Positions 16,902 through 55,545 of a stretch of 64,000 bases of DNA are shown here, piece by piece. Each line of letters begins with the position of its first letter. The first letter of the stretch is position 1. The stretch comes from Zygnema cylindricum. Its lineage: Eukaryota > Streptophyta > Zygnematophyceae > Zygnematales > Zygnemataceae. Both the position numbers and the translations under genes were made by a program. The stretch spans positions 217,156-281,155 of the forward strand of contig JBBHKE010000990.1 of the NCBI GenBank assembly GCA_037447655.1, given 5' to 3'. The notes under the pieces are model-generated. The model saw only the letters and a list, made by a program, of their open reading frames with translations, searched no databases and was not told the origin of the DNA.

Positions 16902-17935
16902 AGTGAGAAACTCCAAGAAACCTCTATCAAGAGATTAAGGAGTGACAATGGTGGAGAGTATACCTTTAACCGGTTTGAGGATTTTTTGGGAGAAGATGGA
17001 GTGCAACACCAAAAGACGGTTCTTGAAAAACCTAAGAAAAATGGTGTAGCTGAAAGATTAAATCGAACACTGAGTGATACTGCTAGGAGTATGCAGTCAG
17101 ATAAGAAGAAAGGAAAGAAGTTTTGGGCCGAAGCAATGAACTGTGCAAATTATCTTAAGAATAGAGTTCTTACTTCAATTATATAAGGTGAAACACCTTA
17201 TGAGAGATGGACCGGCTGGAAACAAGACATATCTCACTTAAAGGTTTTCGGGAGTCAAGTATTCAGGCTAGATATAGATCGGTCTAATTAGAAGCTAGAT
17301 CCTAAAGGAAAACCGGGATACTTATTAGGATATGATGAGAATGTTAAAGGATATAGAGTTTATGATCTAAAAAGGGAAGATATAATCTTAGTAAAGCATC
17401 TAGTAGTTATGGATGAATGAAAGTTTGTGGATCCCTTCAAGTATACAAACTCAGTAAAAATCTGATTTGAGACAGAAAATTCCGATGACTTTGAGCTTCC
17501 TAACTATCCAGGTTTTAGAGAAGATGAAATTCTTGGAAGTACAAATCAGACCGAAAAGTACTCGGTTGCGGAAACTCCTATGAATACTCTACTCGAAGTG
17601 GAAGACGTGGTGGAAATAGATTCGGAATCAATGGACAGGGGAGAAGCAAAGATTGCTCGAAAAAACCAACGAGAACCATCTATTCCGGCCACACATTTTG
17701 ATGTGGGAAGGAGAAGTAGCAAAAGATTGCAAGAAAAACAGGTTAATAACAAGGTTACAAAACTATCTCATCAAGATGAACCTTAGACTTATGCAGAGGC
17801 GATGACTTGTCCAGAAAGGAACCGGTGGAAGACATCCATCAATGAGGAGATGGCCTCAATTATGACAGCCGATACTTGGGAGCTGGTGGATTGTCCACCT
17901 AACCGAAAACCAATCGGTTGTAAGTCGGTCTTCAA
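16902..17935 (+). pseudogene. Element T integrase core and linker (3-prime part)
   Basis: Starts in mid-integrase with SEKLQETSIKRLRSDNGGEY (second catalytic Asp in SDNGGEY) and NGVAERLNRTLSDTARSM (catalytic Glu), followed by the conserved HLKVFGSQVF and KPGYLLGYDENVKGYRVYDL region and the acidic linker ending YAEAMTCPERNRWKTSINEE. Stops at about 17184, 17288 and 17418 and a frameshift near 17935 inactivate it. The N-terminal part of this integrase is at 55546 on the other strand; about 110 bp between them is missing. Confidence 0.85.
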
Positions 17936-19363
17936 ATGAAATTGAACCCAGATAACACCATTAAGCGTTACAAAGCCCAATTAGTGGCAAAAGGATTTAT
18001 ACAGAAAGAAGGAATCGACTACGAGGAAACCTTGGCCGCGGTCGTCAGATTTCCCTCCGTCCACATACTTTTCAGTCTAGCAGCACCGAAAGACATGGAG
18101 GTGCACCAGATGGACATCAAAACAACCTTTTTGCAGGGAGTATTGGAAGAGGAGATCTTCATGCGACAAGTCGAAGGATTGGTGGAGGAAGGAGAGGAGA
18201 GTAAGGTATGCCGGTTGATTAAATCTCTTTATGGTTTAAAACAAGCGCGTCGACAATGGAATAAGAAGCTTGATGAGTTTCTGACAGGTCTGGGATATAT
18301 CCAGATCAGCTCATATCACTCAATCTATGTTTTTGAAGATGAGGAAGGTGTTATATTTGTTGCAATTTATGTTGATGATTTGATTGTTTTAACTAAATCA
18401 ATGAAAAAATTTAATAAACTGAAAACCAATCTTAAAGGGAGATTTGAAATGAAGGACATGGGGGAGGCAAGATATATTTTGGGAATTCAAGTTGAAAGAG
18501 ACCGAGAAAGAAAGATTATAAGATTGACTCAAAAGGAAGCAATAGGGAACATGTTGGAAAAATTTCAGATGGATAAAGCTAATAGTTGCACAACTCCAAT
18601 GGAGTTAAGAAGGGGATGCGAGGGGAGTAAGGATGAACGAGTCATAGTCTTAGAGGAGAAATTAAGTCCTAAAGAACAGAAGTTCATGCAAACTATTCTT
18701 AACAGGCAAGTAGTGGGAAGACTAATCAATTTTATGAATTTTACCCGACGGGATATAGCTGCAGCTGTAGGAGTGTTGAGTAGAAGTCTAAGTGCTCCCA
18801 CTATCAAGGATTGGGAGGCAGCTAAGAGAGTCATTAGATATTTAATAGGAACTAGGGATCTATGGTTGCATTTGGGTTGGGAGAATATCGACATCACTAC
18901 TTCTAGTGGTGCCACTTATGATGATGCTCTGATGAGGAGATGCACTCCTGGATATGTTTTATATGTGGGTGATAGGGCTTGCTGTTGGAGTAGCAAACAG
19001 CAAAAGGTTATTGCTCAGTCCACCATGGAGGCTGAGTATATGGCCTCTTGCTCTGGTGTAAAAAAATTGATGTGGGTCAAGTCTTTGCTTGGTGAGCTAG
19101 GTTACATTAAGAGTGGTGTGCATAATTTTTTTTGTGATAATCAGGCAGCAATCGCTATTTCTACCAATCCTAAACATCATTTTAAAGCCAAACACATGGA
19201 CATTACACTCTGCTTTGTTAGAGAGAAAGTAGAAAACAAAATTATCAGTTTAGAGTACCGACCAGATAGTGAGATGGTAGCAGATATGATGACCAAACCT
19301 GTGCCTTCCCCTAAGCTAATTTTCTGCAGGGAGAAGTGTGGTATGAAATTAAAGAGTGATTAG
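17936..19363 (+). CDS. Element T reverse transcriptase-RNase H, intact 475-codon stretch
   Basis: The longest open frame of the window. Residues about 1-60 hold YKAQLVAKGFIQKEGIDYEE, about 60-85 MEVHQMDIKTTFLQG (first RT Asp), about 100-150 LIKSLYGLKQARRQWNKKLD and IYVDDLIVLTKSM (catalytic YVDD). RNase H follows from about residue 320: GATYDDALMRRCTPGYVLY, TMEAEYMASC (Glu), CDNQAAIAIS (Asp) and KHHFKAKHMD (His). It ends PVPSPKLIFCREKCGMKLKS, the usual copia C-terminus, 13 bp before the LTR. The annotated ATG is internal to Pol; native translation would come from the upstream gag-pol frame, which is broken. Not a stand-alone gene. Confidence 0.85.
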   Translation: MKLNPDNTIKRYKAQLVAKGFIQKEGIDYEETLAAVVRFPSVHILFSLAAPKDMEVHQMDIKTTFLQGVLEEEIFMRQVEGLVEEGEESKVCRLIKSLYGLKQARRQWNKKLDEFLTGLGYIQISSYHSIYVFEDEEGVIFVAIYVDDLIVLTKSMKKFNKLKTNLKGRFEMKDMGEARYILGIQVERDRERKIIRLTQKEAIGNMLEKFQMDKANSCTTPMELRRGCEGSKDERVIVLEEKLSPKEQKFMQTILNRQVVGRLINFMNFTRRDIAAAVGVLSRSLSAPTIKDWEAAKRVIRYLIGTRDLWLHLGWENIDITTSSGATYDDALMRRCTPGYVLYVGDRACCWSSKQQKVIAQSTMEAEYMASCSGVKKLMWVKSLLGELGYIKSGVHNFFCDNQAAIAISTNPKHHFKAKHMDITLCFVREKVENKIISLEYRPDSEMVADMMTKPVPSPKLIFCREKCGMKLKSD

Positions 19364-19376
19364 AAAATAAATGGAG

Positions 19377-20443
19377 TGTAGAAATTGATGGTATTTTTAG
19401 TATTTTCTAGGTCTAAAATATAATATAGAAAAGAAGCCAAGGCAATCTGCCTCTAACTCCTCTCATCAACTCCCACACTTGTTGTAGTCACTGAAAGTTG
19501 GAAAGGAAGCTAGAGCGATGGCTAATTAGGCTATCTAGAGGTTTACGGGAAATAGATTAGTTGATTTACGGATTGGTAGTTTCTTTACTTAAAGGGAAGA
19601 TGTCAAATCCAGGATTTGATCCTGGTAACTGCTATTCGATAAAGGCGCCGGTAGCCGGTAGACTTATCCATTAAGTATAGGACTAGAGTTACATGCTATA
19701 GGGTTTGTTACTTATTTAAATGTTGTCACGTAGGATAATTCATTTAACGACAACTGTTTACGGGATACATAGATTGAATTATATAAAAGTACGGATCACG
19801 GTTTGGATAAGAAACGAGTACCGCGCATTTGTTTTTTTAAACGAAACAAATACCGTGCAAGTATTTATGACGGCTACGATTGAAATCTGCATTTAATTGG
19901 ACGGCCGAGAAGAATGCCGAGATCGCGGAAGAGAATCTCGGCGGTTTGTGGTCATCGCCACATCGGATGACACGTGGTAAAACTACATTGGATCGCGGCA
20001 TCTCCGGGGATTATGCGACTGAATTCGGATATGACATGTGTCGACATTTAAGCGATGTCGTACAATATTCGTACAGAAAGTACACCGGCAACTGTACTTT
20101 TGTGTACGGCAGTGTAATATGATTGGTGTTGTACCTCAGTAGATAGAGTTTTAAAGAGAGATAGGGCTTAGAAAAAAATGGTAGATAGGACCCTCTCTCC
20201 TAGAGAGCTTGTGTGCAAAAGGTCAACTTTGACCTTCTATAACTTACTGCTTAAGGGAGCAAATTCAGATATTCTTTTTGGTATCGACTCAGGGGAGTCT
20301 TGCATTCAAGGAAGTGAAGGTGGTCAGAGTTTTTGTTTACCAGGGTGGCAGTTATTCTTGCCGAAACACAAAGGGTTAGGGTTATCCTAGAGGCTTCTTG
20401 GAAGCTGTCCACTCTGAGGACCTATGGAGGTCTCAAAGTTGCA
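19377..20443 (+). mobile_element. Element T 3-prime LTR (copia alpha)
   Basis: TGTAGAAATTGATGG to CAAAGTTGCA, 1067 bp, preceded by PPT-like AAAATAAATGGAG. Its right flank ATTTT (20444-20448) is the reverse complement of AAAAT (58382-58386), which flanks the sister LTR 57317-58381. Both LTRs alone share GGATTGGTAGTTTCTTTACT and the AAAGGGAAGATGTCAAATCC stretch. The pair is now in opposite orientation. Confidence 0.9.
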
Positions 20444-20448
20444 ATTTT

Positions 20449-22344
20449 CTAGTCTACTTCTTTTCAATTCTCACAAACAAATAAACAAACATTCGCTTCC
20501 TTTTTTTTTCCTTTTCCTTTTTTTTTCATAAAACTTTAAGTTAACACCATTATATTTAAAAAGGTCCATTAAATGAGCTGTAGTAAACATTCTATTTAGC
20601 ATCCCACTTTCATAAATTCGAGCAAAGATATTATCCACCTCATCCTTTTTCCATCCACACAAAAGTCTGATTTCCCTCTTGCAATTGAACCAGCCAGCCC
20701 CATCTTGAATTTGCAACACACACCTAGATGCTAACCCTTTTACGGGTACACCTTCATAGATGACATCACTCCCATTAGTGATGTCAAAACCATTACCCTC
20801 AAAATTTATCTTTAAATCAAGAGTCCCCACTAAGTTCCTCATAAAATTTACATCTTCCTAACTCATATTTCTATTCATGATAATTATCCCACTTCTTGAA
20901 CTTTCCTCACTCTCTCTTGTGGAAAATTTCCACTATCACTTTCTATTTTGATTCCCAATAAATATTTCTCCTCCCCTAAACTTTTAATCAAATATTCCTC
21001 TTCTCCCTTATCATTTAGAGCCCCCTCTAGACCTACTTCTCCCCTTACTTTGAAATCCGTTGAAATCTCTTTTCCGACCAGTTTTATGTTTCCAAAATAT
21101 CTATAAAATTACCCTCATTATTTTTAACTCCCTTAAATACCTTCTTTCTCTTCACTTCCCTTATACCTCTAAAAGCACACTATTGCTTTCTTAGAATTTC
21201 TGTGTGTTTTTCTCTCTTCTCCATTCTACCAATGTGAAGAAGCTCCAAAATATCTTCATCCTCTTTCTCCTCTTCTTTTTTTTCCTCCTCATCCACATTC
21301 CAACTTCTAAGTTCTTCTAAACAAGGGCTTTCCCCCATATAATGACCCGGTTCCCTACAAAAGAAGCAAACCCCTCTTTTTCAAAGCTCCCTTTTCTTTT
21401 CCTCTCCCTCTCTTTCCAACAAAGTTGCGATAAGATTTACCTTTGTCTTTCTTCCTCTCATCACGCTTTCGCTCGTCATCGCCCTTCCTCTTATCACGAT
21501 TTCGCCAACCACCACCAGTTGTATATGCATTCACCCTGCCAATTCCCCTTCGAAGTTCCAAAGTGCTTTCCCTCACAAGATTCATCACTATGGTAATGCT
21601 CCAAGTCCATGTGGATCCATCCATTCCTTGCCTAGAGTAAATGATGTCTACGTACTCATGTGGGAGTTTCATGATAAGTGTATTAATCTTACTCATCTGG
21701 GAGTTTCATGATTAGTGTATTAATCTTTCTCTCCTCAGATTCTCCATATCCCGCACTAGCAAGCTCAACATATAAAGCAGCAATATCATTGCAAAACTCT
21801 ATCATGCTACCACCTTTATAAATATATGCATTGATTTCCTGTTTTACTGACTGTTGTCACTGTATAGTGTCACTCTTATAAATATGAATTAGTGTTTCCC
21901 AGATTTTCGAATACTTGGTTAGATTTATAAGATTGATAGCTATGGACTTAGACACATATCTAAGTATGAGATGTTTTGCTATAGTGTTTTTTATATTCCC
22001 AATTTTTTCTGTCATTTTTTTCAGTTTTTGGTTCAGTTATTACCCCCACAAGTGGAACCGTAGCCGAGAGCCTAGCTCCCCTCACCATCAGTGTCCCTTT
22101 ATCCTTTTCTCGTTTTCCCCCTTCCATGGTAATGATTTTCCCTTCACCTTCCGTTGCATCCTTACTCCGGTTGGTTTTTTTGGAAAGCCCAGATGATTCT
22201 CCATAGTGAGTTCTTCCAAAGCCCGGTGGCGGACAGCTCACTTGTCCCGAAACAATTCCACATAATTGCTTTTCAAAAAGCAATCCCTCAATCGTGAACT
22301 CCTAATAAGTGAAGTCTGTTCCATCAAACATAGGCACCATAGAT
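20449..22344 (-). pseudogene. Element gamma internal region, deleted gag-pol
   Basis: Minus-strand reading from 22344: leader, Gag N-part (MLFEKQLCGIVSGQVSC), Gag core (MSKINTLIMKLPHEYVDII, TLELRRGIGRVNAYTTGGGW), a decayed zinc knuckle (FCREPGHYMGE), an acidic linker, then a jump to the end of reverse transcriptase (KSLGEEKYLLGIKIESD) and a diverged RNase H (LVGTLDLKINFEGNGF, LQIQDGAGWFNCKREIRLLC). Protease, integrase and most of the reverse transcriptase are missing, so this copy is an internally deleted derivative of a family related to alpha. Its 3-prime end abuts the T LTR because T inserted there; the last 13 bp of gamma are at 58382-58394. Confidence 0.75.
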
Positions 22345-22359
22345 GGTGGACCTATAACC
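22345..22359 (-). other. Primer-binding site of gamma (degenerate half tRNA-iMet)
   Basis: Reverse complement GGTTATAGGTCCACC differs at two positions from the R site GGTTATGGGCCCACC. Next to it the LTR end is unusual: GGTTATG occurs twice and a GCACCAT/ATGGTGC inverted pair surrounds the site. Confidence 0.65.
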
Positions 22360-23549
22360 CATAACCTAGATGGTGCGCTCCATTGCCACACAAAATTTGC
22401 AGATCAAAAGAAGCTAATCTAGATAGTGACGAATCCAAGTTTATATAAACCGAAATGATTGACCCCTTGACAATCAAAACCCTATAACAACTTCACCCCT
22501 GTGAAATAAGACTTTTTGTGTGCTCAATTCCACCACAGAATGCAAAGTTAGAATATGAGATTTAGACAAATTAACCCACTTTGACTTTCCCTTAGAAATG
22601 CAGCCACCCTGGTAGGCAAACACTGTGACCAACTTCACCCCTGTGTAGCTTGGACTCCCTTGAGTCCGCAGCAAAAAGAATCACTGAAAATGGTCAATTG
22701 AGTTGATAGTTATGACTGGCCAAAGTCTGCCTTTTATACAAGATGCCCTCTGGGAGAGGCGGCTACCTACCAGAAATATTCTAAGTCGTATCTCTCTCTA
22801 AGACTCTATCTACCGACGTACAACACCAATCACTTTACTGCGCCGTACAAAAAAGTACAGGTGCCAGTGTACTTTTTGTACGGCCATCGTACGATATGGT
22901 CGAAATGTCGACACATATCATGTCCGTATTTGTTCTCGTAATTTCCGGAGTTGCTGCAATCCAATGTTGATGTGCCACGTGTTACTTAACGTGGTGATGA
23001 CCGTAAAACGCCAAAAATACATATTCCGCGATCGCGGCGCTTATCGTGGCCGTCCAATCAAATCCGGCTATATTTCTAGCCGTTGAAAATAGACACGCAG
23101 TATTTGTTTCGCGATCGAAACAAATGCGCAGTATCCGTTTCATACAATACATAAAACGATACTCTGTGCTATCTAGAACTATATCTATGCACTACGTTTA
23201 TATTTCCCTTTAAATGAATTAGTTTACGTGTAACTATTTAAGTATTTATCAAACCCCAGGTATGCTAGTACTAGCCTTAGACTAAACTGACAAAGCTACC
23301 GGCTATCAGAATATTGACGGACGGTAGGTACCAGGATCAAATCGTGGTTCCGTCAATATCTATTTTAGTAAACTTACCATTTATCTACACTTGTCTCTCT
23401 GGAGAGCTTGGGTAGCCATAGCTCTAGCTCCTTTTCCAGCCTTCAGTGACTACAACAAGTGTGGGGGCTTGGAGAAGGGAGTCAGAGGCAAACCGCCTCT
23501 GCTCTTTTTATATCCTCATAAAGACCTACAAAATACTCAAATTTCAACA
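22360..23549 (-). mobile_element. Element gamma 5-prime LTR (copia beta)
   Basis: Reverse complement begins TGTTGAAATTTGAGTATTTT; 1190 bp. Sister of 58395-59580: both carry GACAAGTGTAGATAAAT, GTTTACTAAAATAGATATT and ACTAGCATACCTSGGGTTTGAT. Its outer (right) side abuts the Helitron N-terminal remnant at 23550. A perfect 11-bp stem ATATTGACGGA (23311-23321)/TCCGTCAATAT (23349-23359) encloses the conserved CCAGGATCAAATC hairpin. Confidence 0.85.
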
Positions 23550-25470
23550 AATGCCACCTTAGTACACCATATGGAAATAAAAGTGGGGATTGGAGTGGGT
23601 CATATAATGCATGTGACTGAAAGATGCGCATCATTCGATTGCCTCCTCTTACATTTAAAACTATATCTTTTCCTTCAGTATTTTTTGTTGGGTTAACCAA
23701 AATTGATGCCACTTCCTTTGCTTGTGGTGGATTGTAACAGCGTTGGTCTAAATTGTGAACATCATCTTTTAGTACTAAGCGTAATTTAGGGGCTTCATAG
23801 ATTTGGTCTCTTGCTGAAATAAATTGTTGCGCCAAAGGGTTATGTTTCTTCATCATATTCTGAATGATTGTCACTACATCGTGGTCTAATCTATCCATAA
23901 TACTCATTCGCCTGCTTATTTTTGTCTCCATTGATGTGTGAAATACGCAGACTTGTGCAAATGCAACTTGGTTTTCTTGAGGCGATAGTTGACCTATTCG
24001 ACGACATATTTTTCATTGAATACGGAAATTGAAAGAACCATTACTGGCTCCAATCGATAAGTCGTTGAGAGGTAGCGTTTTGGATGCACCAAATGATGTA
24101 AACGAAAACACCATGTTGTACGAAAGAATTTTATTTAAGAAATTTGTATTGCTATATAAAGTTAAAAGCTCTGAATGAGGCGTTTCATATGGAGCAAGTT
24201 GTACTTTGCCAAGTACACAACAAACTCATGCGGTCTCTCCTACCCATTTTTGTGAGTTGCAATGAGTGCATGTAATTTCCATAAGTGGAAGTTTATGGTG
24301 TTCTGGACGTGTGTAATGTTCATAAAGTCCTAAAGCAATTTTCAGCACCCCTCACGTCGTCGTGTGATACGTTGACGTTGAAGGTCACCTTTTGTGCGTT
24401 TTTGAGTGTCAAGCTATTCTTTTGTCAAATTTTGTTGTTGTACGGTGTATTGTCTAACTTCATGCTCTTCGAAGGATTCGTGAGTACATTTGGTGTTGTC
24501 TTGAATAACATTAGCTTCTTCTCCAGCAGCTTGTAGTTTTTCATCCTCATCATTTTGTAGAGCAAAATGTTCTTCAACATCAATAGTACATATTTTAGCG
24601 GTGCATTGTTCATTTTCCCTTAACCTTAAGTTCACTGTATGTTGCGCCTCTATGTCTTGAAGGTTTTTCCTTGCCACCTCACTTCTAGTATTGTCTGTTA
24701 GAGAGCTTTTGCTCGTTTTCTTTCATGATTTTTTCTGTAGTCGCTCCTCACGTTTTTCAGGGGTCTCTTATGCTCGTTTCCTTGCACGTTCTTGACGTAA
24801 ATGTTCATTACGTTGATCACTTGTTTCTTTGGTCGATGTGGGTCTAATTGCATCCATATGTACAATGTGGTAATTACTTATATTACTTTAGATCTACCCA
24901 GATTTCTCCTTCCACTTTTTTTATTCGTTTTATTTTACCGTTAAAGCAAAAATACAACTATAATTTCTTTACGGTTAAAATGAATGATGTTTTTTTAAAG
25001 TTGGGGTAGTACACCTTTTTCAATTTAAGAGCTTCTTCATTTAAGCATTCAAATTACTGTCACGATCAAGTTGCTTTATGTGTTGTAAGTGTGACTATAG
25101 TCTATATGGGAACAACAATCACAACGTGGTTTTATGAACCACACAGACGCACCTTTTTCTCGTTTTCTTTCACGATCTTTAAACTGACATTGTTCTCGTT
25201 GTTTTGAGGGTTCACGCGCGCGCTTGGTAGCTGCACGTTGTGCGTCGTTGCGTTTTGATTGAGTTGGTACACCATCATCTAGTTCTTGTTTTGTTGCACG
25301 TGTAACTCTCTTTCTTTTACCCTTTTTGCGCAACCGTTTTTCGCATTGCTTTGCTGTAATTTGGGTCTTAGTAGGAGTATGTGTAGCGGTTGGAAGTCCA
25401 TGTGGTGGATTAGACCCTGCGTCCACGCATAAAATATGGTCAGTACGTGTCTTTCAATTCCCACCGGCAT
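23550..25470 (-). pseudogene. Helitron Rep/helicase protein, N-terminal half
   Basis: Reading leftwards: two Arg/Lys/Glu-rich blocks typical of Helitron N-termini (KRLRKKGKRKRVTRATKQE at about 25330; a block near 24750 reading TPEKREERLQKKS), then the Helitron_like_N region with THCNSQKWVGETA, NMVFSFTSFGASKTLPLND, QLSPQENQVAFAQVCVFH, METKISRRMSIMDRLDHD, NMMKKHNPLAQQFISARDQI, a RDIVL-like DIVLNVRGGNRMMRIF and YDPLQSPLLFPYG. At least two in-frame stops (near 24010 and 24226). The protein is cut at LLFPYG by the gamma LTR. The Rep catalytic and helicase parts are absent here and are found at 59581-63332 on the plus strand, starting where this half stops. Confidence 0.85.
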
Positions 25471-26640
25471 GTCTCATATTATTTTTTATCAATATTTTAT
25501 TTGCCACATGAAGAAAGGGTACAACGATTATATGTACGTCATGAATAACTAATTACATTTTCATTCATCTTTACTCACTTTCATTACATTTTTCCAACTC
25601 AAACCCATCATAGTAGCTTTTTAATTGGAAGAGTAAATTGGCATGCATCTATCCCACATACACATTTTACGACATTTTTATGGAAATTTTTACTTTAAGA
25701 TCTCTATCCTACCAACATATCGAAAGACTTAACATGACAACCAATAATCTCATTCCATAAAGTTCTTTAACAATATCTATACTATTTACAGGGAACAATA
25801 ACGGTAGTGTGATTTTTTTAGCTCACCTGAATGATATTGTATTTCTTTAGTTGTAGGTTGAAGCATCTATTTGGCCAAAATGCCACTCCTGAACGTATTT
25901 CCGAAAGGTAAAAGCATCATGCGTTTTATGTGCTTGTTAACTCTGTCGATTTATGTTCAATTGAAATAGGCGTACTAACGTCAACCCATGTTACACCATC
26001 AACCATAACACGATTTAATGAACAACTTGAAAACATAACACACAGTTTCTATTAAGTCCAAATGTCACTTCCGTACCATCATGCGTTCTATGTGCTAATT
26101 AACTTTATCAGTTTATGTTCAACTTAAAAGCGTACTACTATAGATTATACACTTCATAACATAAACCATAATATGATTCAATGTAACAACACGAACACAT
26201 CACAAACTCTTTCAAACTACAAAAGTGATTTATCATACGTTGAGTGAATTAAAGTACGCTACTCATATCTACACATTTTGCACATTTTTTACGAACAAAA
26301 CCCACTTTGAAACAAGAAATTCATTTTTTATCTGCCTGTGTACACCAACAAATCATGAACTAACCACACTTTCAAACGGGAAAAGCCGTTTTTTTCCTAA
26401 TTGTAGCTCTACATCGTACATGGCCGGTACGGCTGTTAGTCTGTAATGCCACGATTGGCAACGTTACATTACGCCAGCTGTACGGCGGTCTGTACTGCAA
26501 ACGGTCGCATGACAACGTTACATTGTGCCAGCTGTACGGTTGTCCTTACTGCGGACAGACAGAAAAAAACGATGACCGACATATCGCCTATATAAGGGTT
26601 TCCAAAAAAGAGACTGAAGGTCCATAATTTATATAGTGTT
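25471..26640. other. AT-rich stretch upstream of Helitron ORF
   Basis: No gene seen. It may be the 5-prime untranslated part of the Helitron. Two diverged 54-bp tandem units at 26459-26566 begin CAACGTTACATT and contain GCCAGCTGTACGG. The TC-type 5-prime end of the Helitron was not located. Confidence 0.4.
26459..26566. repeat. 54-bp tandem duplication
   Basis: CAACGTTACATTACGCCAGC at 26459 recurs as CAACGTTACATTGTGCCAGC at 26513; the units continue with TGTACGG and a TACTGC motif. Moderately diverged. Confidence 0.65.
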
Positions 26641-26659
26641 AAAAGGAGCACTAGATTTT

Positions 26660-27493
26660 TTTATACGACCATCATTCACATGTTGAAAAGATTTTACCTC
26701 GAAGCGAAAACTTTTGAATATTGAAAATTTGTGGAGGTACACATGATTCACCGTTTAGAGCCAATCCTACATGACAAGCAACAAAGCAACATATCTTGCA
26801 ACTAACTCCCTCTCAACTTTATTACATCACCTACAACTTCCTCCTTATTGCCTTCAAAAGACACAACCTCAGTGATGAGTAATCACGTGCCTATGTTACA
26901 TCAACAACTATTTCTCACTAAGCTTTACTATTTCTCTCCAAACTTTCCCAATTGACAACCTTAATGACTATTCGTAATGTAACTGTGTTACATGTCACTA
27001 TCTTGCTAAGCTTTCCTCCAAAACCTTCGTGAAAAGTGACTCTTCACTTAATCATCCCAATCAACTTCGTCAGCATCCTCTCTTATCATTGCTCTCTGTG
27101 AGCCCTACTGGAAGAGCTCCCCTTCCATACTCACCCTCCATTAGCACGCCCTTCAGCATTTCGTCCAAGAGAATATAAAGAAAAAAATGAAAAAAAAACC
27201 CACCCAATTAAGTATCCAGCATGTTGATTACAATCTTCATTTATTTTTAATACTCTTTTACTTTCAAATACTATTATAAGAAACAACAAATCATGGACTT
27301 ATTATTAACACAATCAACATGATAGCCATGTTAACACACACTATTATGATAAGTTCACAATATAATTTTCAATGTGAAAGCAAACTATTTTGTGTAAACT
27401 GACCTGGATCCTAGAGGCGTCGCCAAATGTCACATATTTGCATCTTTCCCTCGTAGCTGCAGTTTGTGCCTGGGCAATAGTACCCCCTTTAGA
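26660..27493 (+). repeat. Dispersed repeat segment, copy 2 (empty sites)
   Basis: Aligns with the 3690-6410 segment after removal of the MITEs there. It shares the landmarks listed for copy 1 and ends at TTAGA (27489-27493), the left TSD copy of the LTR array. Copy 2 lacks all of the DNA-transposon insertions of copy 1, so it serves as an internal empty-site control. The part beyond the array resumes at 45778. Confidence 0.7.
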
Positions 27494-28092: not shown

Positions 28093-28107
28093 GGTTCCAG
28101 GCCCACC
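28093..28107 (+). other. Primer-binding site of delta unit 1 (decayed)
   Basis: GGTTCCAGGCCCACC follows LTR1; the unit 4 equivalent (40903-40917) is GGTTAAGGGCCCACC, one mismatch from the perfect half tRNA-iMet site of element R. The same primer use by two LTR families is indicated. Confidence 0.65.
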
Positions 28108-28135
28108 CCTTTGGAGCCCAAAGGAGTTCGAAATT

Positions 28136-40902: not shown

Positions 40903-40917
40903 GGTTAAGGGCCCACC
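40903..40917 (+). other. Primer-binding site of delta unit 4
   Basis: GGTTAAGGGCCCACC directly after LTR4; one mismatch to the half tRNA-iMet site GGTTATGGGCCCACC of the alpha family. Confidence 0.7.
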
Positions 40918-45772: not shown

Positions 45773-45777
45773 TTAGA

Positions 45778-45930
45778 TACTTTGACACCGTAAGCCCTAA
45801 TTCCGCACAATGCAAAACCGAAATAACAACAACAATAAAAATAAAAAGCAATATTAAACCGCCTGGTGGATGCTTTTTGTCGTTACGCTGCTTGATTGTC
45901 ATCCCCATACCTCCTAACTAGCGCGCCATT
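45778..45930. other. Flank of the array and right TSD of element H
   Basis: 153 bp of sequence between the delta array and H; continues the copy 2 segment. Ends CCATT (45926-45930), the inverted partner of AATGG at 8968-8972. Confidence 0.6.
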
Positions 45931-46981
45931 TGCAACTGTGAGACCTCTGTAGGTCATTATAATATACAGCTCACACGAAGCCTCTAAGATAACCCTGACC
46001 CCTTTGTGTTTCATCAAGAATAATTGCCACCCTGGCAGACAAAAAATCTAACCAGCTTCATCCTTGTCAAAACAAGACTCCCATGAGTTGATAGCAAAAA
46101 GAATCTTTGAATTCGCTCCCCTGAGCAGTAAGTTATGAAGGGTACAAAGTTGACCTTTTGTATTGAAACTCTCTAAGAGAGAGGGTCCTATCTACCAAAT
46201 TTTCCTAAGACCTATCTCTCTCTAAAACTCTATCTACTGAAATACGGCACCAATCAAAATACTGTATCGTACAAAAAGGTACAAGTGCAAGTATACTTTG
46301 TTTACGGCCATTGTACGACATGGCCAACTAGTTGACGCATGCCATATCTGGATTCGTTCTTGTAATCACCAGAGATGTCGTAATCTAATGTTGTCGTTCC
46401 ACGTGTCAATCAATGTGGCGGTGACCGAAAACTGCAAAAATCCTATTCTGCGATCTCGGTGTCATTCGTAGCCATCTGATCAAAACCGGATTTTAATTGT
46501 AGCCATCATAAATCGTTGCGTGATATTTAATTCGATGTCGAAACAAATTGCCCGGTATGCGTTGCGTATTCGTATTGTACTCCGTACTTTACAAAACCGT
46601 TTCCATGCGCGACGTTTATAATTTCAGCTAAATGAATTTGTTTACGCGTCACAGTTTAAATATTTGTCAAACCATATATGTCTCAGCATAGATCCTAAAC
46701 TATTATGATAAAGCTAACCACTACCGGCTAGCTTGATAGACGGTAGGTACCTGGATCAAATCTTTGGCCTGTCAAGTTCTTTTTTAGTAAATCTACTAAA
46801 GCATTTACCTGTCTCTCTCTCTGGATAGCAAAGGTAACCATGGCTCTATCTCCCTCTTGAACCTTCAATGACTACGACAAGTGTGGGAGCTAAAGAGAGG
46901 AGTTAGAGGCAGAGTGCCTTAGCTTCTTTTCTGCAATTAATTTCTAACTAGAAAATACTAAAAGAACAATTAATTTCCACA
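45931..46981 (-). mobile_element. Element H 3-prime LTR (copia alpha)
   Basis: Reverse complement TGTGGAAATTAATTG to CACAGTTGCA, 1051 bp. Sister of 8973-10016, as shown by shared private sequence and by the AATGG TSD. Lies in the inverted segment, hence opposite orientation. The CTTGATAG (46732-46739)/CTGTCAAG (46769-46776) stem encloses the conserved hairpin. Confidence 0.9.
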
Positions 46982-47061
46982 CTCTTGTTATTTTGTATTC
47001 CCCTTTTAATTTCATACCACACTTCTCCCTGCAAAAAAATAGCGTAGGGGAAGGCACAGGT
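46982..47061 (-). pseudogene. Element H 3-prime end of pol and PPT
   Basis: Encodes the last residues before the LTR (the AFPYAIFLQGEVW-type tail) and ends in CAGGT (47057-47061), one TSD copy of the solo LTR that follows. Confidence 0.7.
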
Positions 47062-48240
47062 TGAAACTTTGTGTGCTCCATTGCCCACTCAAATCGCAGA
47101 TCCAAAAGAAGCTAATCTAGATAGTGGCGACTCCAAGTTTATATAAACCCAAATGACTGACCCCAAGACAATCAGAAACCCATTATAGCTTCACCCCTGT
47201 GAAAAAAGACTTTCTGTGTGCTCAGTTCCACCACAGAATGCAAAGTTAGAATATGAGTTTTGGACACATTCACCCACTTTAACTTTCCCTTTGAAATATT
47301 GCCACCTTAGCAGGAAAAAACTCTGACCGACTACTCTCTTGTGTAGCTTGGACTTCTTTGAGTCCGCAACAAAAAAAATCACTGAAAATGGTCTAGTAAA
47401 TTGATAGTTATAAATGGTCAAAGATGACCTTTTGTACTGGAGCTCTCTCGGAGAGAGGCTGCTACCTACTAAATTTTTTAAGTCCTATCTCTCTCTATAA
47501 CTCTATCTACTGACGTACAACACCAATCAAATTACTGTGTCGTATAGAAAAGTACATTTCTCGGTGTACTTTCTGTACGACCATCGTACAACATGGCCAA
47601 AATATCGACACATGTCATATCCGGATTTGTTCCCGTAACCTTCGGAGTTGCCGCAATCCAACGATGTTGCGCCACGTGTCATATGACGTGGCGATGTTAG
47701 TAAAATGCCAAAAGTACATATTTCGTGATTGCGGCCCCTATCGTGGCCGTCCGGTCAAAACCGGATTCAATTATAGCCGTTGAAAATATACGCGCGGTAT
47801 TTGTTTCGCGGTTGAAACAAATGCGCGGTATCCGTTTCATATAATACATTAAACTGTACATTGTACTATTCAAAACTGTATCTATACATTACGTATCTTT
47901 TTCCCGTTAAATGAACTAGTCTACGTGTAACAAATTAAATATTTGTCAAACCTTCTATATCCTACCACTAATCCTAGACTTATAGGTTAAAGCTAACATG
48001 TAGTTTGACGGACGGTAAGTACCCGGATCAAATCCTGGATCCGTCATACCTTTTAGGTAACTTTATATAGATTTGCCAAGAGGACAACCTAGGCATCCAT
48101 GAATCTAACTCCTCCTCAAATCATCAGTGATTGCAACAAGTGTGGGGACTAAAGTGAAGAGTTAGAGGCTAGTTGTCAGTGTCTCCTCTTTAACTTTAAT
48201 TTTACAATCTCTAGACCTAGAAAATAGTTCAATTTCAACA
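47062..48240 (-). mobile_element. Solo beta LTR in H, TSD CAGGT
   Basis: Reverse complement TGTTGAAATTGAACTATTTT to AAAGTTTCA, 1179 bp. Perfect 5-bp TSD CAGGT (47057-47061, 48241-48245). Fixes the exact ends of the beta LTR family. Confidence 0.95.
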
Positions 48241-48602
48241 CAGGTTTTGTCATCATATCTGCTACCGTTTCACTATATGGTCTATATTCTAAACTGGTTA
48301 TTCCGTCTTCTACCTTTTCCCTAACGAAACTAAGTATAATGTCCATATGTTTTGCTTTAAAATGTTGTTAAAGATTGGCAGAAATGGCAATTGCTGCCTG
48401 ATTCTCACAAAATACTTTATGAACACCACTCTTAAGATAACCAAGTTCACTAAGCAAAGACTTATCCCACATTAATTCTCTTACAGCAAAGCAAGAGGCC
48501 ATGTACTCAACCTCCATGGTGGACTGAGCAATGACCTTTTGTTGCTTGCTACTCCAGCAGCAAGCCCCATCACCCACATACAATACTTACCCATACGTGC
48601 AT
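48241..48602 (-). pseudogene. Element H RNase H fragment
   Basis: Minus-strand copia RNase H: YVGDGACCWSSKQQKVIAQS, TMEVEYMASCF, and CENQAAIAISAN (the usual CDNQAA Asp replaced by Glu). Interrupted on the right by the beta LTR at 48603; continues at 50967. Confidence 0.85.
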
Positions 48603-50966
48603 TGAAACACTAAGACCTCCATTGGTCTTCAAAGTAGGCAGCTCTCAAAAAGCTTATCTAGTTAGTGCAAACTCCAAGTTGATACAAACCCAAATGATTG
48701 ACCCCTTGACAATCAAAACCCTAATACAACTTCACCCTTGTGAAATAAGACTTTCTATGTGCTCAATTCCACCACAGAATGCAAAGTTAGAATATGAGTT
48801 TTGGACACATTCACCCACTTTGACTTTCCCTTAGAAATACAGCCACCTGTTGATATTTGAGTATTTTCTAGGTCTCTATTAGGATAGAAAAAGAGCTGAG
48901 GCGGTCTGCCTCTAACTCCCCTATCCAAGCCCCCACACTTGTTGTAGTCACTGAAGGCTGGATAGGGAGCTAGAGCCATGGCTGCCTAGGCTCTCTAGAG
49001 AAGACAGGGGGTGAAATAGGTAGACTTACCAAAAGTTAGTTGACGGACCCAGGAATTGATCCTGGTACCTGCCGTCCGTCAATCCGCATTAGCCGTTAGC
49101 TCTAGCCGTTAAGTCTAGGACAGATATTAAAATATATAGGGTTTGATAAATATATAAATCGTCATTTGTAGATTAATCCGTTTAACGATTAATAGATACT
49201 TAGTACATAGATACAGTTTGATTTAGTACGAAGTACGGTATGTGGACAGAACGGATACCGCGCATTTGTTTCGCTATCAAAACAAATACCGCGCGTCGAA
49301 TTTCAGCGGCTAGGATTATAGCCAGTTTTGATCGGACGGCCACGATAGGCGCGGCGATCACGGAAAAGGCATTTTTGGCGTTTTACGGTCTTTGCCACGT
49401 CAGATGACACGTGGCGTGATAACATTGGACTACGGGAATTCCGAAGATTACAGGAACTAATCCTGATTTGACACGTGTCGACATTTTGGCGATGTCGTAC
49501 AATGGCCGTACATAAAGTACACCGGCACCTGTACTTTTCTGTACGACACAGTAATTTGATTGGTGCCGTACTTCAGTAGATAGAGTTTTTGAGAGGGAAT
49601 AGGACTTAGAAAATTTTGGGTAGGCAGCTGCCTCTCCCAGAGAGCACTCTGTATAAATGGCAAACTTTGGCCAACCATAACTATCAATTTACTTGACCAT
49701 TTTCAGTGATTATTTTTGCTGCGCACTCAGGGGAGTCTAGGCTACACAAGGGTGTAGTCGGTCAGTGTTTTTGTCTGCCAGGGTGGCTGCATTTATAAGG
49801 GAAAGTCAAAGTGGGTGAATGTGTCCAAATCTCATATTATAACTTTGCATTCTGTGGTGGAACTGAGCACACAGAAAGTGTTATTTCACCGGGGTGAATC
49901 TATATTGGGATTGTGACTGTCAAGGGGTCATTCATTTGAGTTTATATTAACTTGGAGTCGACACTATCTAGATTAGCTTCTTTTGGATCTGCATACTCTG
50001 AGGGCCAATGGACGTCTCAGAGTTTCACCACCTTGGCAGGCAAAATATCTAACCGACTACACCTCTGTGTAGCGTGGACTCCCCTGGGTCCGAAGCAAAA
50101 AGAATCACTAAATTTGGTCAACCGAGTGAGTTAATATTAAATGGCAAAGTTTGCCGATTTATACTGATGCTCTCTAGTAGAGAGGTGGCTACCTACAAAA
50201 ATGTTGTAAGTCCTAAAACCCCTCTCTTAACCCTCTAGTATTGATGTCCGGTCCAATCGCAACACTGTATAGTACATAAAGGTACAAGTGTCGGTGTACC
50301 TTTTGTACGGCCATCGTACGACAAGGCCAAAAAGTCGATACATGGCATATCCGGATTCGTTCCTATAATCCCTAGAGATGCCGCAAGCAAATGTGGTTGT
50401 GCCACGTGTCAATCGACGTGGTTATGACCGCAAACCGCCAAAAACCTATTCCGCGATCTCGGCATCTATCGCGACCGTCCGGTCAGAACCGGCATTTAAT
50501 TGTAGCCCTTGAAATTAAATGCGCGATATTTGTTTCGCTATCGAAACAAATGCACGGTATTTGTTTCATCATCTTACCGTACTCCGTACTATATAAAAAC
50601 AATATTTATGCATGACGTACTATTTCTAGTTAAACGAATTAGTCTATGTGTAAACATTTGAATTCTTATCAAACCCAATGTATCATAGCACACTTTTTAG
50701 GCTAAATGTTAGCGTTGTCGGCTACCGGCTTGTCTGACCAACGGTAGGTACCAGGATCAATTTGAGGGTCAGTGAATCCCTTTTTGGTAAATATACTAGA
50801 CAGTACTCCTGACTCTCTATAAAGCTTAGGCAGCCATGGCTCTAGCTCCCTATCCAGCCTTCTGTGACTACAAAAAGTGTGAGGGCTTAGAGAAAGGAGT
50901 TAGAGACAGACTGCCTCTGCTCTTTTCTGTCCTAACAAAGACCTAGAAAATACTTAAATTTGAACA
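48603..50966 (-). mobile_element. Solo beta LTR in H, TSD TGCAT, itself split
   Basis: Two parts, 48603-48847 and 50033-50966, together one beta LTR in minus orientation, flanked by TGCAT (48598-48602, 50967-50971). Split by the plus-strand beta LTR at 48848-50027. The left end is somewhat diverged. Confidence 0.9.
48848..50027 (+). mobile_element. Solo beta LTR nested in a beta LTR, TSD CCACC
   Basis: TGTTGATATTTGAGTATTTT to CAGAGTTTCA, 1180 bp, flanked by CCACC (48843-48847, 50028-50032). The third level of nesting: H, then beta minus, then beta plus. Confidence 0.95.
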
Positions 50967-53900
50967 TGCATCTCCTCATAGGAGCATCCCTATATGTGGC
51001 ATCACTCCAAGTGGTGATGTAAGTATTGTACTCACCCAAATGCAGCTATGAATCTCTAGTCCCTATGAGATATCTAAGGACTCTCTTAGCTGCCTCCCAA
51101 TCTTTCTAAGTGGGAGCATTCAGACTCCTTCTTAGTACTCCTAAAGCTACGGCTATGTCTAGACGCGTACAATTTATGAAATATATTAGGTTGCCCACTA
51201 CTTGTCTATAAGGGACGGTCTGCATAAATCACTTCTCTCCCGAGCCTACCTCATCATCCAAGATTATAACTCCCTCTTCCACACTCCCCTCACTTCCCTT
51301 CTTTAGTTCCATAAGAGTGGAACAACTATTAGCCTTGTCTATTTGGAATCTTTCTAACATGATTCCAATGGCCTCTTTTTGAGTTAATCATATTATCTTT
51401 GTATCTTTGTCTCTCTCTCTACCTAAATTCCCAAAAAATACCTAGCTTCTCCCCTATCTTTCATCTCAAATCTTCTTATTAGATCATTTTTCAACTTATT
51501 TATTTTATCCATAGATTTACTTAAAACAAGCAATCATCAACATAAATTGCAATAAAAATAATTCCTTCCTCATCTTCAAACAAATAAATTGAGTGATCGG
51601 AACTGATCCAAATGTATCCCAAACCTATAAGAAACTCATCGAGCTTCTTGTCCATTGTCGGCGCGCATGTTTCCTCCCATACAAAGATTTGATCAATCGT
51701 CATACCTTGCTCTCCTCCCTTTGCTCCACAAATCCTTCGGGCTCTCATATAAAAATCTCCTCTTGTAACTCTCTATGTAGGAAGGCCGTCTTGATGTCCA
51801 TCTGATGCACTTCCATGTCTTCTACTGCAGCCATACTGAGAACTATCAGAACTGAGGGAAACCTGACGACCGGAGCAAAAGTCTCCTCGTATTCAATTCC
51901 CCTTTTTCGGGTAAATCCCTTCGCCACTAACCGAGCCTTGTAGCGCTCAATGGTGTTATCCGGGTTGAGTTCCAATTTGAATACCCACTTACACCCGATT
52001 GGCTTCCTATCAGGGGGACAATCTACCAATTCACACGTATTGGCTGCCATAATCGAAGCCATCTCCTCATTTATGGTTGTCTTCAACCAATTCCTATCAG
52101 GACATTTCATCGCCTCACCATAAGTTTGGGGTTTATCGAGATGAGACAGTTTGGTTACCTTGTTGTTAACTTGTGTCTCTTGCAGTCTTTTGCTGATTCT
52201 CCTTCCACCCTCAAACTATGATGCCAGAATGGATGGCTCTCGTGGATTCTTACGAACAGTTTCAACTTCTCCTCTATCCTTCGAATCTGGGTCTATTTCC
52301 ACCACGTCTTCTGCTTCGGTTGGAGTTAGCACTAGTGGTTCCACGGCTGAATTCTCCTCAGTTTGATTTGCACCTGCAATATCATCATCTTCTCAAAATT
52401 CTGGATAGTTAGAAAGTTCAAAATCATCATAATTTTCTGACTCAAATCTGATTTTGACTGTCTTTGTATGCTTAAAGGGATCTACACATTTCCCTTCATC
52501 TATGACCACTAGATGCTTTACTAGGATTATATCTTCTCTCTTGAGATCATAGACTCTATATCCTTTTACATCTTCATCATATCCTAGCAAGTATCTTGGT
52601 TTTCCTTTTGGATCTAACTTCCAGTTTGACCGATCTGTGTCTAGGCTGAATACTTGACTACCGAAAACCTTTAAGTGTGAAACATCTGGTTTTCGTCCGT
52701 TCTATCTCTAATAAGGAGTTTGGCCTTTTACTTCTGAAGTAAAAACTCTATTCTTGAGATAATTTGCACAGTTCATAGCTTCGGCCCAAAATCTCTTTCC
52801 TATCTTCTTATCTGAGAGCATACTCCTGGCACTATCACTTAGTGTTCTATTTAACCTCTCGGCTACACCAATCTGCTCAGGATTTTTAGAAATTGTCTTT
52901 TGGTGTTGCACTCCATGTTCTCTCAGAAAATCCTCAAACTGATTGGAGGTATACTCTCCCCCATTATCACTCCTTACTGTCTTAATAGAGGTTTCATGGA
53001 GTTTCTCACTCCATGCCTTATCTTCCTTAAATACCTGTGGGGCCTCTGATATATTTTTCAAAGCCACAACATAATATGATGAACACGAGTATAGTAAAGT
53101 TTCTTTTTTGATCGCTTAAAGTCAGCTTAAACATCCATTGGCTACCTTTTTCAGCAGTAAAATAAACTTCCTCCTCAAAACTAGCAGTAAAGGTTCCCTT
53201 CATAGTGATTATCCCAAAACCCTTATCATCTAACATAGACGTTGAGAGGAGGTTTTTGTTTAACTCTAGAATAAACAACACATCGGAGAATGTCACTATG
53301 GATGTCTTTCCCTCCACTAAGACTTTCAGATCTACCGATCCTACCATAGTAGTAGTGACTACCCTCCCATCCCTATACTCTATCTCTACGGTGGAAATCT
53401 TTCTCATCTTAGTGAACACGTGTTTATCCTTACACATGTGCATGGAGGCACCGGAATCCACAATCAAACCTCCTTCACCTTTCAAACCTCCAAAAGCACA
53501 TTTTTGCTTTCGAGGAATTTCGACATCGGTCTTTGCCTCCAACTCCTCATCCAGCAAGAGCTCATCGTCTTCGTCCTCGGATTCCTCCTCATGTACCTGA
53601 GTCACAAGAGCCTTTTTCTTTCCTCTTAGAGGTCCACCAATCTGCCCCTTCTTTAACCGACGTTCAGTTAGCTTAGTGCACTCCACCATATAGTGCTCTG
53701 GTTTCTTACAAAATTGACACAAACCTTTGGGAGCCCTTGGTCCAAACTCCTCGTTTTGATTTTTCTGCCCCCCTCCTCGATAATTTCCTATCGGTTTCCT
53801 AAATTCGTTGTTCCTCTAATCGGTCCTAGCTGCCAAGGCATGCCCACTCTTTCCTCCCCTTCGGATCTCAATCTTGTTCTCCCGAACGATAATCATCCTT

Positions 53901-54144
53901 ACCAATGAATTCCATATCCACCTTGAGTCTGACAAGTCCTCCACACGGTTTACTATGTTCTCGAACTCATCTGGTAACTTCATGAGCAAGCAGTTAACCT
54001 TCATCTTTTCAGTTTAAACCTATCCTATACTCTCTAGCTCCATGAAAAGTCTTGCGAGCTCATTACAAAAATCCAACATCTTCCCCACCTTGTATGCATA
54101 TGCGTTAATTTTCTGATCAGCCAAATGTTGATACTAATTCGTAC
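50967..54144 (-). pseudogene. Element H gag-mid, protease, integrase, reverse transcriptase
   Basis: Reading leftwards from 54144: Gag core (LPDEFENIVNRVEDLSDSRW), zinc knuckle CQFCKKPEHYMVEC, protease GLIVDSGASMHMC, the start of the integrase region, then a deletion (around 53055-53090) removing the zinc-binding and first catalytic part, then SDNGGEYTSNQFEDF and GVAERLNRTLSDSARS, the KPRYLLGYDEDVKGYRVYDL region, and reverse transcriptase with [33 protein letters not shown] and IYVDD. Many stops and frame changes. It begins at CGTAC (54140-54144), the R target-site copy, in the same Gag codons where the H N-terminal part stops at 10469. Confidence 0.85.
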
Positions 54145-55213
54145 TGTAGAAATTGATGGTTCTTTTAGTATTTTCTAGGTCTAAAATAAAATGCAGAAAA
54201 GAAGCAAAGGCAGTCTACCTCTAACTTCTCTCTTCAACTCCCACACTTGTTGCACTCACTGAAAGTCGGAAAGGAAGCTAGAGCCATGGCTGCCTATGCT
54301 ATCTTGAGATTTACGGGTAGTAGATTAGTTGATTTACGGGAGTACATTAGTTGATTTACTAAAATTAATGTTTTCAAATCCAAGATTTGATCCTGGTATT
54401 ATCCTACAGTTTGAGCCGCCGTAGCCGGTAGCTCTATCCATTTAGTCTATGAGTAGTGATAAACCATATAGTGTTTAATAATTAGATAAACATTACTACG
54501 CTGACAAATTCATTTAACAGAAACTATTTACAAGATACAAGGGTTCGGTTATGTAAAAGTACGGATTAATGTACGAACAAGAAACAAGTACCGCGGATTT
54601 GTTTCGATAGCAAAACGAATATCGCGCAGGTATTTATTACGGCTACGATTAAATCTGCATTTAATCGGACGGCCGAAATGAATGCCGAGGTGGAGCAAGA
54701 GGATTTTGGCGGTTTTTGGTCATCGCAAGATCGGATGACACGTGGCAGATTGACATAAGATCACGGCATCTCCGAGGATTAAGGTAGCGAATCCGGATAT
54801 AACATGTGTCGACATTTAGGCCATGTCGTACAATATCCGTACATAAAGTACACCGGCTGCTATACTTTTGTGTACGGAAGTGAAATATAATTGGTGCCGT
54901 ACATCAGTAGATAGAGTTTTAGAGAGAGATAGGACTTAGAAAAAAATGCTAGATAGTACCCTCTCTCCAAGAGAGCTTCAATCTAAAAAGGTCAACTCTG
55001 ACTCTCCATAGCTTACTACTTAGAGGAGCAAATTCAAAGATTCTTTTTGTTATCGACTCGCGGGAGTCTTGCCTTTACAAGGGTGGAGGTGGTGAGAGTT
55101 TTTGTTTGCCAGGGTGGTGGTTATTCTTGCTGAAACACAAAGGGGTCAGGGTTATCCTAGAGGCTTCTTGCAAACTGTCCATTCTAAGGACCTATGGAGG
55201 TCTCAGAGTTGCA
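54145..55213 (+). mobile_element. Element R 5-prime LTR (copia alpha)
   Basis: TGTAGAAATTGATGGTTC to CAGAGTTGCA, 1069 bp; sister of 10470-11537. Preceded by CGTAC (54140-54144). Now opposite in orientation to its sister because it lies inside the inverted segment. Confidence 0.9.
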
Positions 55214-55228
55214 GGTTATGGGCCCACC
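55214..55228 (+). other. Primer-binding site of R (perfect half tRNA-iMet match)
   Basis: GGTTATGGGCCCACC directly after the LTR. The reverse complement GGTGGGCCCATAACC is the 5-prime side of the anticodon stem and the anticodon loop (CAU) of plant initiator tRNA-Met as I recall it; in animal initiators the corresponding bases read GCTGGGCCCATAACC. Confidence 0.8.
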
Positions 55229-55545
55229 CTCTAGGGTACCCATCTTTAATGGAACTGGCTTCATATACTGGGAAAGTATGATGATAGGAGCTCTATGCGA
55301 GAAAAAAATTTGGGGGGTAGTGAGTGGACGAGTGGGGCGTCCATCAAGTCTTGGAATCCCGCCAGGGTTTGGAGGAAGCAGATTCACAAAGAAAGTAGAT
55401 CTATCTTCAACGGAGTAGACAAAAGAAAGGGATGTGGTGCACAAAGGAACGGAGAACGAGAAAACCACACCAATAGCAACTAGATCGGCATTCATGTCAC
55501 CTATTCCGAGGAACGAGGAGAATGATACTGATACCTAGGACTTCA
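55229..55545 (+). pseudogene. Element R gag, N-terminal part
   Basis: Gag start in pieces: MMIGALCEKKIWGVVSGRVG, GIPPGFGGSRFTKKVDLSST, then a frameshifted Lys/Arg-rich linker. It stops at about the FNN codons (55545), where minus-strand T integrase begins. The rest of this Gag begins at 16901 on the minus strand; about 85 bp are missing in between. Confidence 0.75.

What the first reader, a model, noticed from the sequence alone, without database searches (positions are those of the whole stretch)
16902..55545. A 38.6-kb inversion that restores four transposons and three target-site duplications when flipped
As written, three alpha elements appear as head-to-head fragments. Flipping 16902-55545 in place gives: H with LTRs 8973-10016 and 45931-46981 in one orientation and TSD AATGG (8968-8972; CCATT at 45926-45930); R complete and inverted inside H gag with TSD GTATG/GTACG (10465-10469; CGTAC at 54140-54144); T complete with TSD AAAAT (ATTTT at 20444-20448; AAAAT at 58382-58386); and gamma with LTRs 22360-23549 and 58395-59580. 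Each LTR pair shares private sequence not seen in other copies. One event explaining all of this is far better supported than independent rearrangements. Breakpoints are in R gag and T integrase, with about 85 and 110 bp lost, which suggests end joining rather than recombination between homologous repeats. The inversion post-dates R and T.
Basis: seen in the sequence. Interest (0 to 1): 0.93.

Follow-up and report, generated by a model that had tools for sequence, protein, structure and literature searches.

The report
Small inversion through nested plant retrotransposons
A 38.6-kb stretch of repeat-rich, probably plant DNA seems to have been turned around by two breaks and re-joining, splitting two retrotransposons; the case is clear and neatly readable from one sequence, but inversions of this sort are well known.

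Summary
Four LTR pairs lie inverted to each other, each a nearest-neighbour pair at 100/100 in the 13-LTR tree. TSDs: H and T 5/5, R 4/5, gamma none. H reads on across R apart from a 4-base gap, and the gamma polypurine tract reads on across T. R lost 82 bp and T 106-108 bp; the joins show 1 and 0 bp microhomology and no filler. Best reading: one two-break inversion sealed by end joining after R and T inserted. LTR divergence agrees with the nesting, significantly for R in H only. Assembly error is unlikely but not excluded: no reads, and the own-genome search did not complete (seven tries). Well supported, tidy, ordinary in kind.

The parts
16901..55549 (.). inverted segment, 38,649 bp
   Evidence: homology to paralogous copia bodies switches strand at both ends
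16900..16901 (.). left join: R gag (minus strand) joined to T integrase (plus strand); 1 bp (G) fits both sides
   Evidence: T and H gag matches stop at 16900; R pol and H inner matches start at 16900
55549..55550 (.). right join: start of R gag joined to T; no microhomology, no filler
   Evidence: T and H matches stop at 55549; the R match starts at 55552, with 55550 matching and 55551 not; the H inner match starts only at 55783
8973..10016 (+). H 5' LTR, TSD AATGG at 8968-8972, followed by PBS
10017..10469 (+). H gag, left of R; ends in the R target site GTATG 10465-10469
10470..11537 (-). R 3' LTR
   Evidence: nearest neighbour of 54145-55213, 91.0%
11538..16900 (-). R body, pol and most of gag; carries a 1.29-kb insertion near 13521-14810 absent from T
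   Evidence: PF07727, PF13976, PF22936; gag PF14223 below its curated cut-off
16901..19376 (+). T body: integrase remainder and RT (PF07727)
   Evidence: reads SDNGGEY, an integrase motif from recall
19377..20443 (+). T 3' LTR, TSD ATTTT at 20444-20448
20444..22375 (-). gamma interior, left remainder; its end at 20444 continues the polypurine tract at 58387-58394
22376..23549 (-). gamma 5' LTR
   Evidence: nearest neighbour of 58395-59566, 87.6%
45931..46981 (-). H 3' LTR, TSD (CCATT, reverse complement of AATGG) at 45926-45930
46982..54144 (-). H interior remainder with beta-LTR insertions; target site CGTAC at 54140-54144
   Evidence: PF22936, PF07727 and a sub-cut-off rve match
54145..55213 (+). 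R 5' LTR
55214..55549 (+). R PBS and start of gag region
55550..57316 (-). T PBS, gag and start of pol (PF14223, PF22936, PF13976)
57317..58381 (-). T 5' LTR, TSD at 58382-58386
58387..58394 (+). right part of the gamma polypurine tract, cut off by T
58395..59579 (+). gamma 3' LTR; no TSD found
36145..37191 (+). control: solo LTR wholly inside the inverted segment, TSD AGATC intact
48848..50027 (+). control: beta solo LTR wholly inside the inverted segment, TSD CCACC intact
60247..61285 (-). control: solo LTR wholly outside, TSD TTGTC intact

Best explanation
A real chromosomal inversion of 38.6 kb. H and gamma inserted first, then R into H gag and T into the polypurine tract of gamma (shown by continuity). 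Later two double-strand breaks, one in R gag and one in T integrase, freed the segment between them. It was re-joined turned around by end joining, with 82 bp lost in R and 106-108 bp lost in T. Order and orientation are shown; the breakage and the end-joining step are inferred from the joins; that the genome and not only the assembly has this order is inferred.
For: All four inverted LTR pairs are mutual nearest neighbours with 100/100 support in the 13-LTR tree. In a table of all 144 ordered flank combinations of 12 LTRs, 5 match 5/5: the predicted H and T pairs and three solo LTRs with their own flanks (about 0.17 expected by chance). H reads through the R site with T as template, and GTACG is the target. 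Reading across T gives gamma GACTAGAAAATAA next to its LTR, as in R; the six bases beyond the TSD match R 6/6 and T 5/6. Four paralogue alignments stop or start at 16900; T and H stop at 55549 and R starts at 55552. The R pieces and the T pieces are complementary without overlap, with gaps of 82 and 106-108 bp. R is younger than its host H: K80 0.096 against 0.138, z 2.6. Solo LTRs inside (36145, 48848) and outside (60247) keep local TSDs. No N in the window.
Against: Gamma lacks a TSD; the R TSD is 4/5, and about 2.6 matches of 4/5 or better are expected by chance in the table, where 7 were seen. One unpredicted combination (T with gamma) also reaches 4/5. T against gamma divergence (0.109, 0.137) gives z 1.75, not significant. 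Two LTRs not from one insertion also pair at 100/100. 156,266 of 1,000,000 random inversions would orient all four pairs. No reads, no related accession and no own-genome search could be used.
Confidence: 0.85

Rival explanations
1. Assembly error: the structure is as described, but a contig or graph segment was placed turned around and the genome itself is un-inverted.
For: The region is repeat-rich, with many copies 70-97% alike, and no reads were available.
Against: No N in 64 kb. The joins are base-precise inside R and T at non-homologous positions, whereas assemblers usually err at homologous repeats or leave N (recalled). About 190 bp are missing in complementary fashion, which a mere flip would not cause.
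Confidence: 0.1
2. Inversion by recombination between inverted repeats (NAHR).
For: Same-family copies lie at both ends, and NAHR is a known route for inversions (PMC7584159, passages read).
Against: R and T would be direct copies before the event, the breaks fall in gag and integrase, and the four R-T comparisons of 400-bp arms show no match over 14 bp (E 0.23 or worse). The longest match among all six arm comparisons is 25 bp, 84%, E 0.005, between the two R arms, inverted, about 360 and 160 bp away from the joins.
Confidence: 0.02
3. Independent truncations, solo-LTR formation and insertions gave four unrelated head-to-head fragments.
For: Fragments, solo LTRs and nested insertions abound here.
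Against: It would need two fragment pairs abutting within about 110 bp in element coordinates, two exact TSD matches and two continuous target sites, all by chance.
Confidence: 0.02
4. Inversion through a transposase (alternative transposition) or with staggered breaks.
For: Known routes: alternative transposition in maize (PMC8225341, listing with start of abstract) and staggered breaks (PMC7584159, passages).
Against: The joins lie inside R and T bodies, and there are gaps instead of inverted duplications.
Confidence: 0.01

Closest known systems
Cut-and-paste inversions made by two breaks and non-homologous end joining (as classed in PMC7584159, passages read)
   Same: Two breaks, no long homology between R and T at the breakpoints, no duplicated ends, small losses at the joins.
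   Different: Recognised here from one sequence by nested LTR elements and their TSDs rather than by comparison of two arrangements.
Inversions between transposon copies by ectopic recombination (Galileo in Drosophila, PMC2775673, listing and start of abstract)
   Same: Breakpoints lie inside transposable elements of one family.
   Different: There homologous copies recombine (title of the paper); here the breaks are at non-homologous positions of direct copies.
Nested LTR retrotransposon clusters of plants and their reconstruction (SanMiguel et al. 1996, seen only in a reference list; REANNOTATE, PMC2672092, passages read)
   Same: Insertion-in-insertion order and LTR divergence used as a record. 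That paper mentions an element (Milt) whose 3' LTR is in inverse orientation to the rest.
   Different: REANNOTATE joins only collinear fragments in the same orientation and says it detects only certain rearrangements; I infer that it would not restore this case.
Plant Ty1/copia elements with a PBS for half tRNA-Met: Osser, Bryco, part of Gymco-II (PMC6317226, passages read)
   Same: Copia domains, 5-bp TSDs, and a PBS that fits the anticodon half of plant initiator tRNA-Met (tRNA sequence recalled).
   Different: Lineage not placed by a tree here; the organism is not identified.

Membership tests
Two-break end-joining inversion | segment reversed in place, with both joins complementary | tested here: met
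   strand switch at 16900/16901 and 55549/55550; R and T pieces complementary
Two-break end-joining inversion | no long homology between the breakpoints | tested here: met
   R arms against T arms: no match over 14 bp
Two-break end-joining inversion | no or short microhomology, small losses | tested here: met
   1 and 0 bp; 82 and 106-108 bp lost, judged from paralogues that are only about 80-92% identical, so a base more or less is possible
Two-break end-joining inversion | un-inverted arrangement present in relatives or ancestor | not testable with these tools
   no plant genome collection; own-genome search unanswered
NAHR inversion | inverted repeats at both breakpoints | tested here: not met
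Staggered-break inversion | inverted duplication at the ends | tested here: not met
   gaps rather than overlaps
Ty1/copia LTR retrotransposon (R, T, H) | gag, integrase and RVT_2 domains of copia type | tested here: met
   RVT_2 in T, R and H; gag PF14223 in T above, in R below cut-off (25.2 against 27); integrase core rve only in H and below cut-off (30.2 against 32.6); PF13976 in R and T, PF22936 in R, T and H. Several frames are broken
Ty1/copia LTR retrotransposon (R, T, H) | LTR pair, PBS, PPT and 5-bp TSD | tested here: met
   TSD H and T 5/5, R 4/5
Ty1/copia LTR retrotransposon (gamma) | own copia domains and TSD | tested here: not met
   no TSD; the four interior frames of 110 aa or more (20471, 21346, 21355, 21960) give no Pfam match. 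Gamma has LTRs related to the alpha LTRs, a PBS-like site and a PPT only

The most novel reading that the evidence does not exclude
The two breaks fell in two copies of one family not by chance but because R and T lay paired or shared a break-prone feature, so that copies of a retrotransposon family steer end-joined inversions without recombining. A genome-wide search for nested LTR pairs in inverted orientation with matching TSDs would then show an excess of such breaks.
Probability: 0.06. Interest if true: 0.5.

Novelty: new member of a known kind. Interest (0 to 1): 0.3.

Why it matters
It shows that LTR pairs, TSDs and nesting polarise an inversion and place it after datable insertions from one assembly, without a relative. 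Applied genome-wide, this could find small inversions in repeat deserts that gene synteny misses, and flag assembly flips. The single event itself is ordinary: both joins lie inside already decayed retrotransposons, and no host gene was recognised near them (41 of the 74 frames of 110 aa or more listed were put to Pfam).

Tried and rejected
Own-genome search for the left join: the genome search did not complete seven times, so copy number and independent assembly evidence are lacking. Species: an RVT_2 search (120 of 1980 hits listed) gave copia proteins at best 42% identical; of 11 listed rows that bear an organism name 9 are flowering plants and 2 carry bacterial labels; the best 15 rows bear none. 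A Helitron-like ORF (120 of 319 hits listed) gave mixed eukaryotes. T gag gave no hit among 264 candidates. No species is claimed. Rfam gave no match at gathering scores.

LTR orientation alone was rejected as weak proof (156,266 of 1,000,000 random flips orient all four pairs). Tree pairing and private columns alone were rejected as proof because solo LTRs 36145 and 60247 pair at 100/100 and share 29 private columns, although each has its own TSD. The LTR-like piece 47071-48063 was left out of the TSD table because its ends are unclear. A TSD for gamma was sought and not found.

Literature: six searches. Four of them sought inversions in nested retrotransposons or end-joined inversions; their listings showed 20 of 41, 20 of 44, 20 of 338 and 12 of 12 papers. 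I saw no inversion recognised by this method among the titles and abstract starts, but most hits were not listed and I read passages only of PMC2773423, PMC3017797, PMC4902974, PMC2686159, PMC2672092, PMC6317226 and PMC7584159. PMC8225341 and PMC2775673 were seen only in the listing with the start of the abstract. This is no claim that the method or the locus is unpublished.
Full report
What is there. The window is repeat-rich eukaryotic, probably plant (inferred), DNA without N. Copia-type domains lie in pieces of R, T and H: reverse transcriptase PF07727 in all three, PF22936 in all three, PF13976 in R and T, gag PF14223 in T and, below its cut-off, in R, and an integrase core match (rve, 30.2 bits against a cut-off of 32.6) in H. 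LTRs of about 1.0-1.2 kb fall into an alpha and a beta/gamma group, about 70-75% alike over long alignments. The primer-binding sites of H, R and T share GTTATGGGCCCAC. From recall this fits the anticodon half of plant initiator tRNA-Met. PMC6317226 (passages) reports half-tRNA sites (Met or Ile) in about 2% of plant elements, half tRNA-Met among copia in Osser, Bryco and part of Gymco-II, and 5-bp TSDs in 93.4% of elements.

LTR pairing. In a tree of 13 LTRs (8 alpha, 5 beta/gamma) the pairs H, R, T and gamma each have 100/100 support, with identities of 87.5, 91.0, 89.9 and 87.6%; the next-best partners are at about 75-83%. In the separate alpha and beta trees T and gamma have 99.7/100. As the window stands all four pairs are inverted, which an intact LTR element cannot be. 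Two cautions. The solo LTRs 36145 and 60247 also pair at 100/100 (85.5%), though each has its own TSD. And 156,266 of 1,000,000 random inversions would put all four pairs in direct orientation. So pairing and orientation alone do not settle the case.

Target-site duplications. For 12 LTRs with definable ends all 144 upstream/downstream 5-mer combinations were compared; one LTR-like piece, 47071-48063, was left out. Five of 144 match fully: H with H, T with T, and the solo LTRs 36145, 60247 and 48848 with themselves. Two of 144 match 4/5: the R pair and one unpredicted combination (T with gamma). From the per-pair chances about 0.17 exact matches and 2.6 matches of 4/5 or better are expected, so the R match alone is not beyond chance. 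The gamma pair matches at 2/5, so no TSD is claimed. The R mismatch has a simple reading: T and the R body, which carry the same gag site uninterrupted, read GTACG there, as does the right copy, so the left copy GTATG has a C-to-T change at a CpG.

Continuity across the inserted elements. H gag left of R (ending 10469) and right of R (starting, reversed, at 54144) together follow T without loss apart from a 4-base gap near the end of the left piece. Gamma is interrupted by T in its polypurine tract. Reading rc(20444-20475) and then 58387-58394 gives GACTAGAAAATAAGGGGAG before the LTR; R has GACTAGAAAATAAATGGAG. The six bases beyond the TSD on the left match R 6/6 and T 5/6. Only two 15-mers of 127,972 in the window match the T tract at 13/15 or better, which I take to be T itself and R, identical over these bases. 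These two results link DNA on the two sides of the proposed inversion.

The joins. Around the left join, T and H gag matches to R stop at 16900, and R pol and H matches to T begin at 16900. The base G at 16900 fits both sides, so there is 1 bp of microhomology. Around the right join, T and H matches to R stop at 55549 and the R match to T begins at 55552; 55550 matches R and 55551 does not; neither side extends over the other, so there is no microhomology. The H inner match begins only at 55783, because H lacks that stretch. No filler is seen. Between the two R pieces 82 bp are missing, by T and by H alike; between the T pieces 106-108 bp, by R alone. The paralogues are about 80-92% identical, so a base either way is possible. 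The R break maps inside the T gag domain (coordinates). The T break lies after PF13976 and, in H coordinates (53012), at the start of the rve match; T goes on with SDNGGEY, an integrase motif from recall.

Mechanism. Passages of PMC7584159 distinguish NAHR (inverted repeats, duplications at the ends), staggered breaks (inverted duplications in the inverted state) and cut-and-paste end joining (neither). Here the four R-T comparisons of 400-bp arms give no match over 14 bp (E 0.23 or worse). The one longer match, 25 bp at 84% and E 0.005, is between the two R arms and lies about 360 and 160 bp from the joins. The pieces show gaps and not overlaps, and R and T would be direct copies before the event. 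This fits two breaks with trimming and end joining. That step is inferred; the pathway (classical or polymerase-theta) cannot be told from 1 and 0 bp.

Order and age. K80 between LTRs: H 0.138, R 0.096, T 0.109, gamma 0.137. R is younger than its host H (z 2.6); T against gamma points the same way without significance (z 1.75). The inversion cuts R and T and so is younger than both. In years R is about 3.7 My at 1.3e-8 or 22 My at 2.2e-9 substitutions per site per year (both rates recalled). This is only an upper bound for the inversion, and I found no lower bound.

Assembly error. Against it: no N, precise joins at non-homologous points, and complementary losses. For it: repeat-rich DNA and no reads. 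The own-genome search did not complete, and none of the DNA collections described to me is of plants. I put it at 0.1.

Verdict. It is one more end-joined small inversion in nested retrotransposon DNA. The method by which it was read is of more use than the event.

Noticed in passing
27494-45772: A chain of LTR elements with about 600-bp LTRs that appear to share LTRs (near 27494, 32337, 35486 truncated, 40302, 45172; bodies 87-97% alike, the LTRs at 27494 and 32337 only 83%) and whose outer flanks both read TTAGA. It looks like a product of recombination between LTRs or a multi-copy insertion and lies wholly inside the inverted segment.
   Followed up: partly
10017-10036, 55214-55233, 57297-57316: Primer-binding sites of H, R and T fit the anticodon half of plant initiator tRNA-Met (recalled), a rare type reported for Osser, Bryco and part of Gymco-II copia elements (PMC6317226, passages), which hints at a host outside the flowering plants.
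   Followed up: partly
13521-14810: A 1.29-kb insertion in R pol that T lacks, with 20-bp-period tandem units (13538-13752) and a 203-bp self-complementary stretch at 14423-14624.
   Followed up: partly
59900-63001: A decayed Helitron-like element (Helitron_like_N at 59900-60268, PIF1 helicase at 62591-63001, a Helitron-related frame at 61187-62047), apparently split by the solo LTR 60247-61285 with TSD TTGTC.
   Followed up: partly
20449-22375: The gamma interior is only about 1.9 kb, has no match of 150 bp or more elsewhere in the window, and its four frames of 110 aa or more have no Pfam match, so gamma may be a non-autonomous element using copia-type ends.
   Followed up: partly
12006-12286: A 140-bp direct tandem duplication, 99% matching, inside R; more alike than the R LTRs (91%) and so probably later than R (inference).
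   Followed up: no
625-990: A frame with a short match to Methyltransf_21 (FkbM), 28.6 bits against a cut-off of 22.7, over 37 residues: possibly a host gene fragment, about 16 kb outside the inversion.
   Followed up: no
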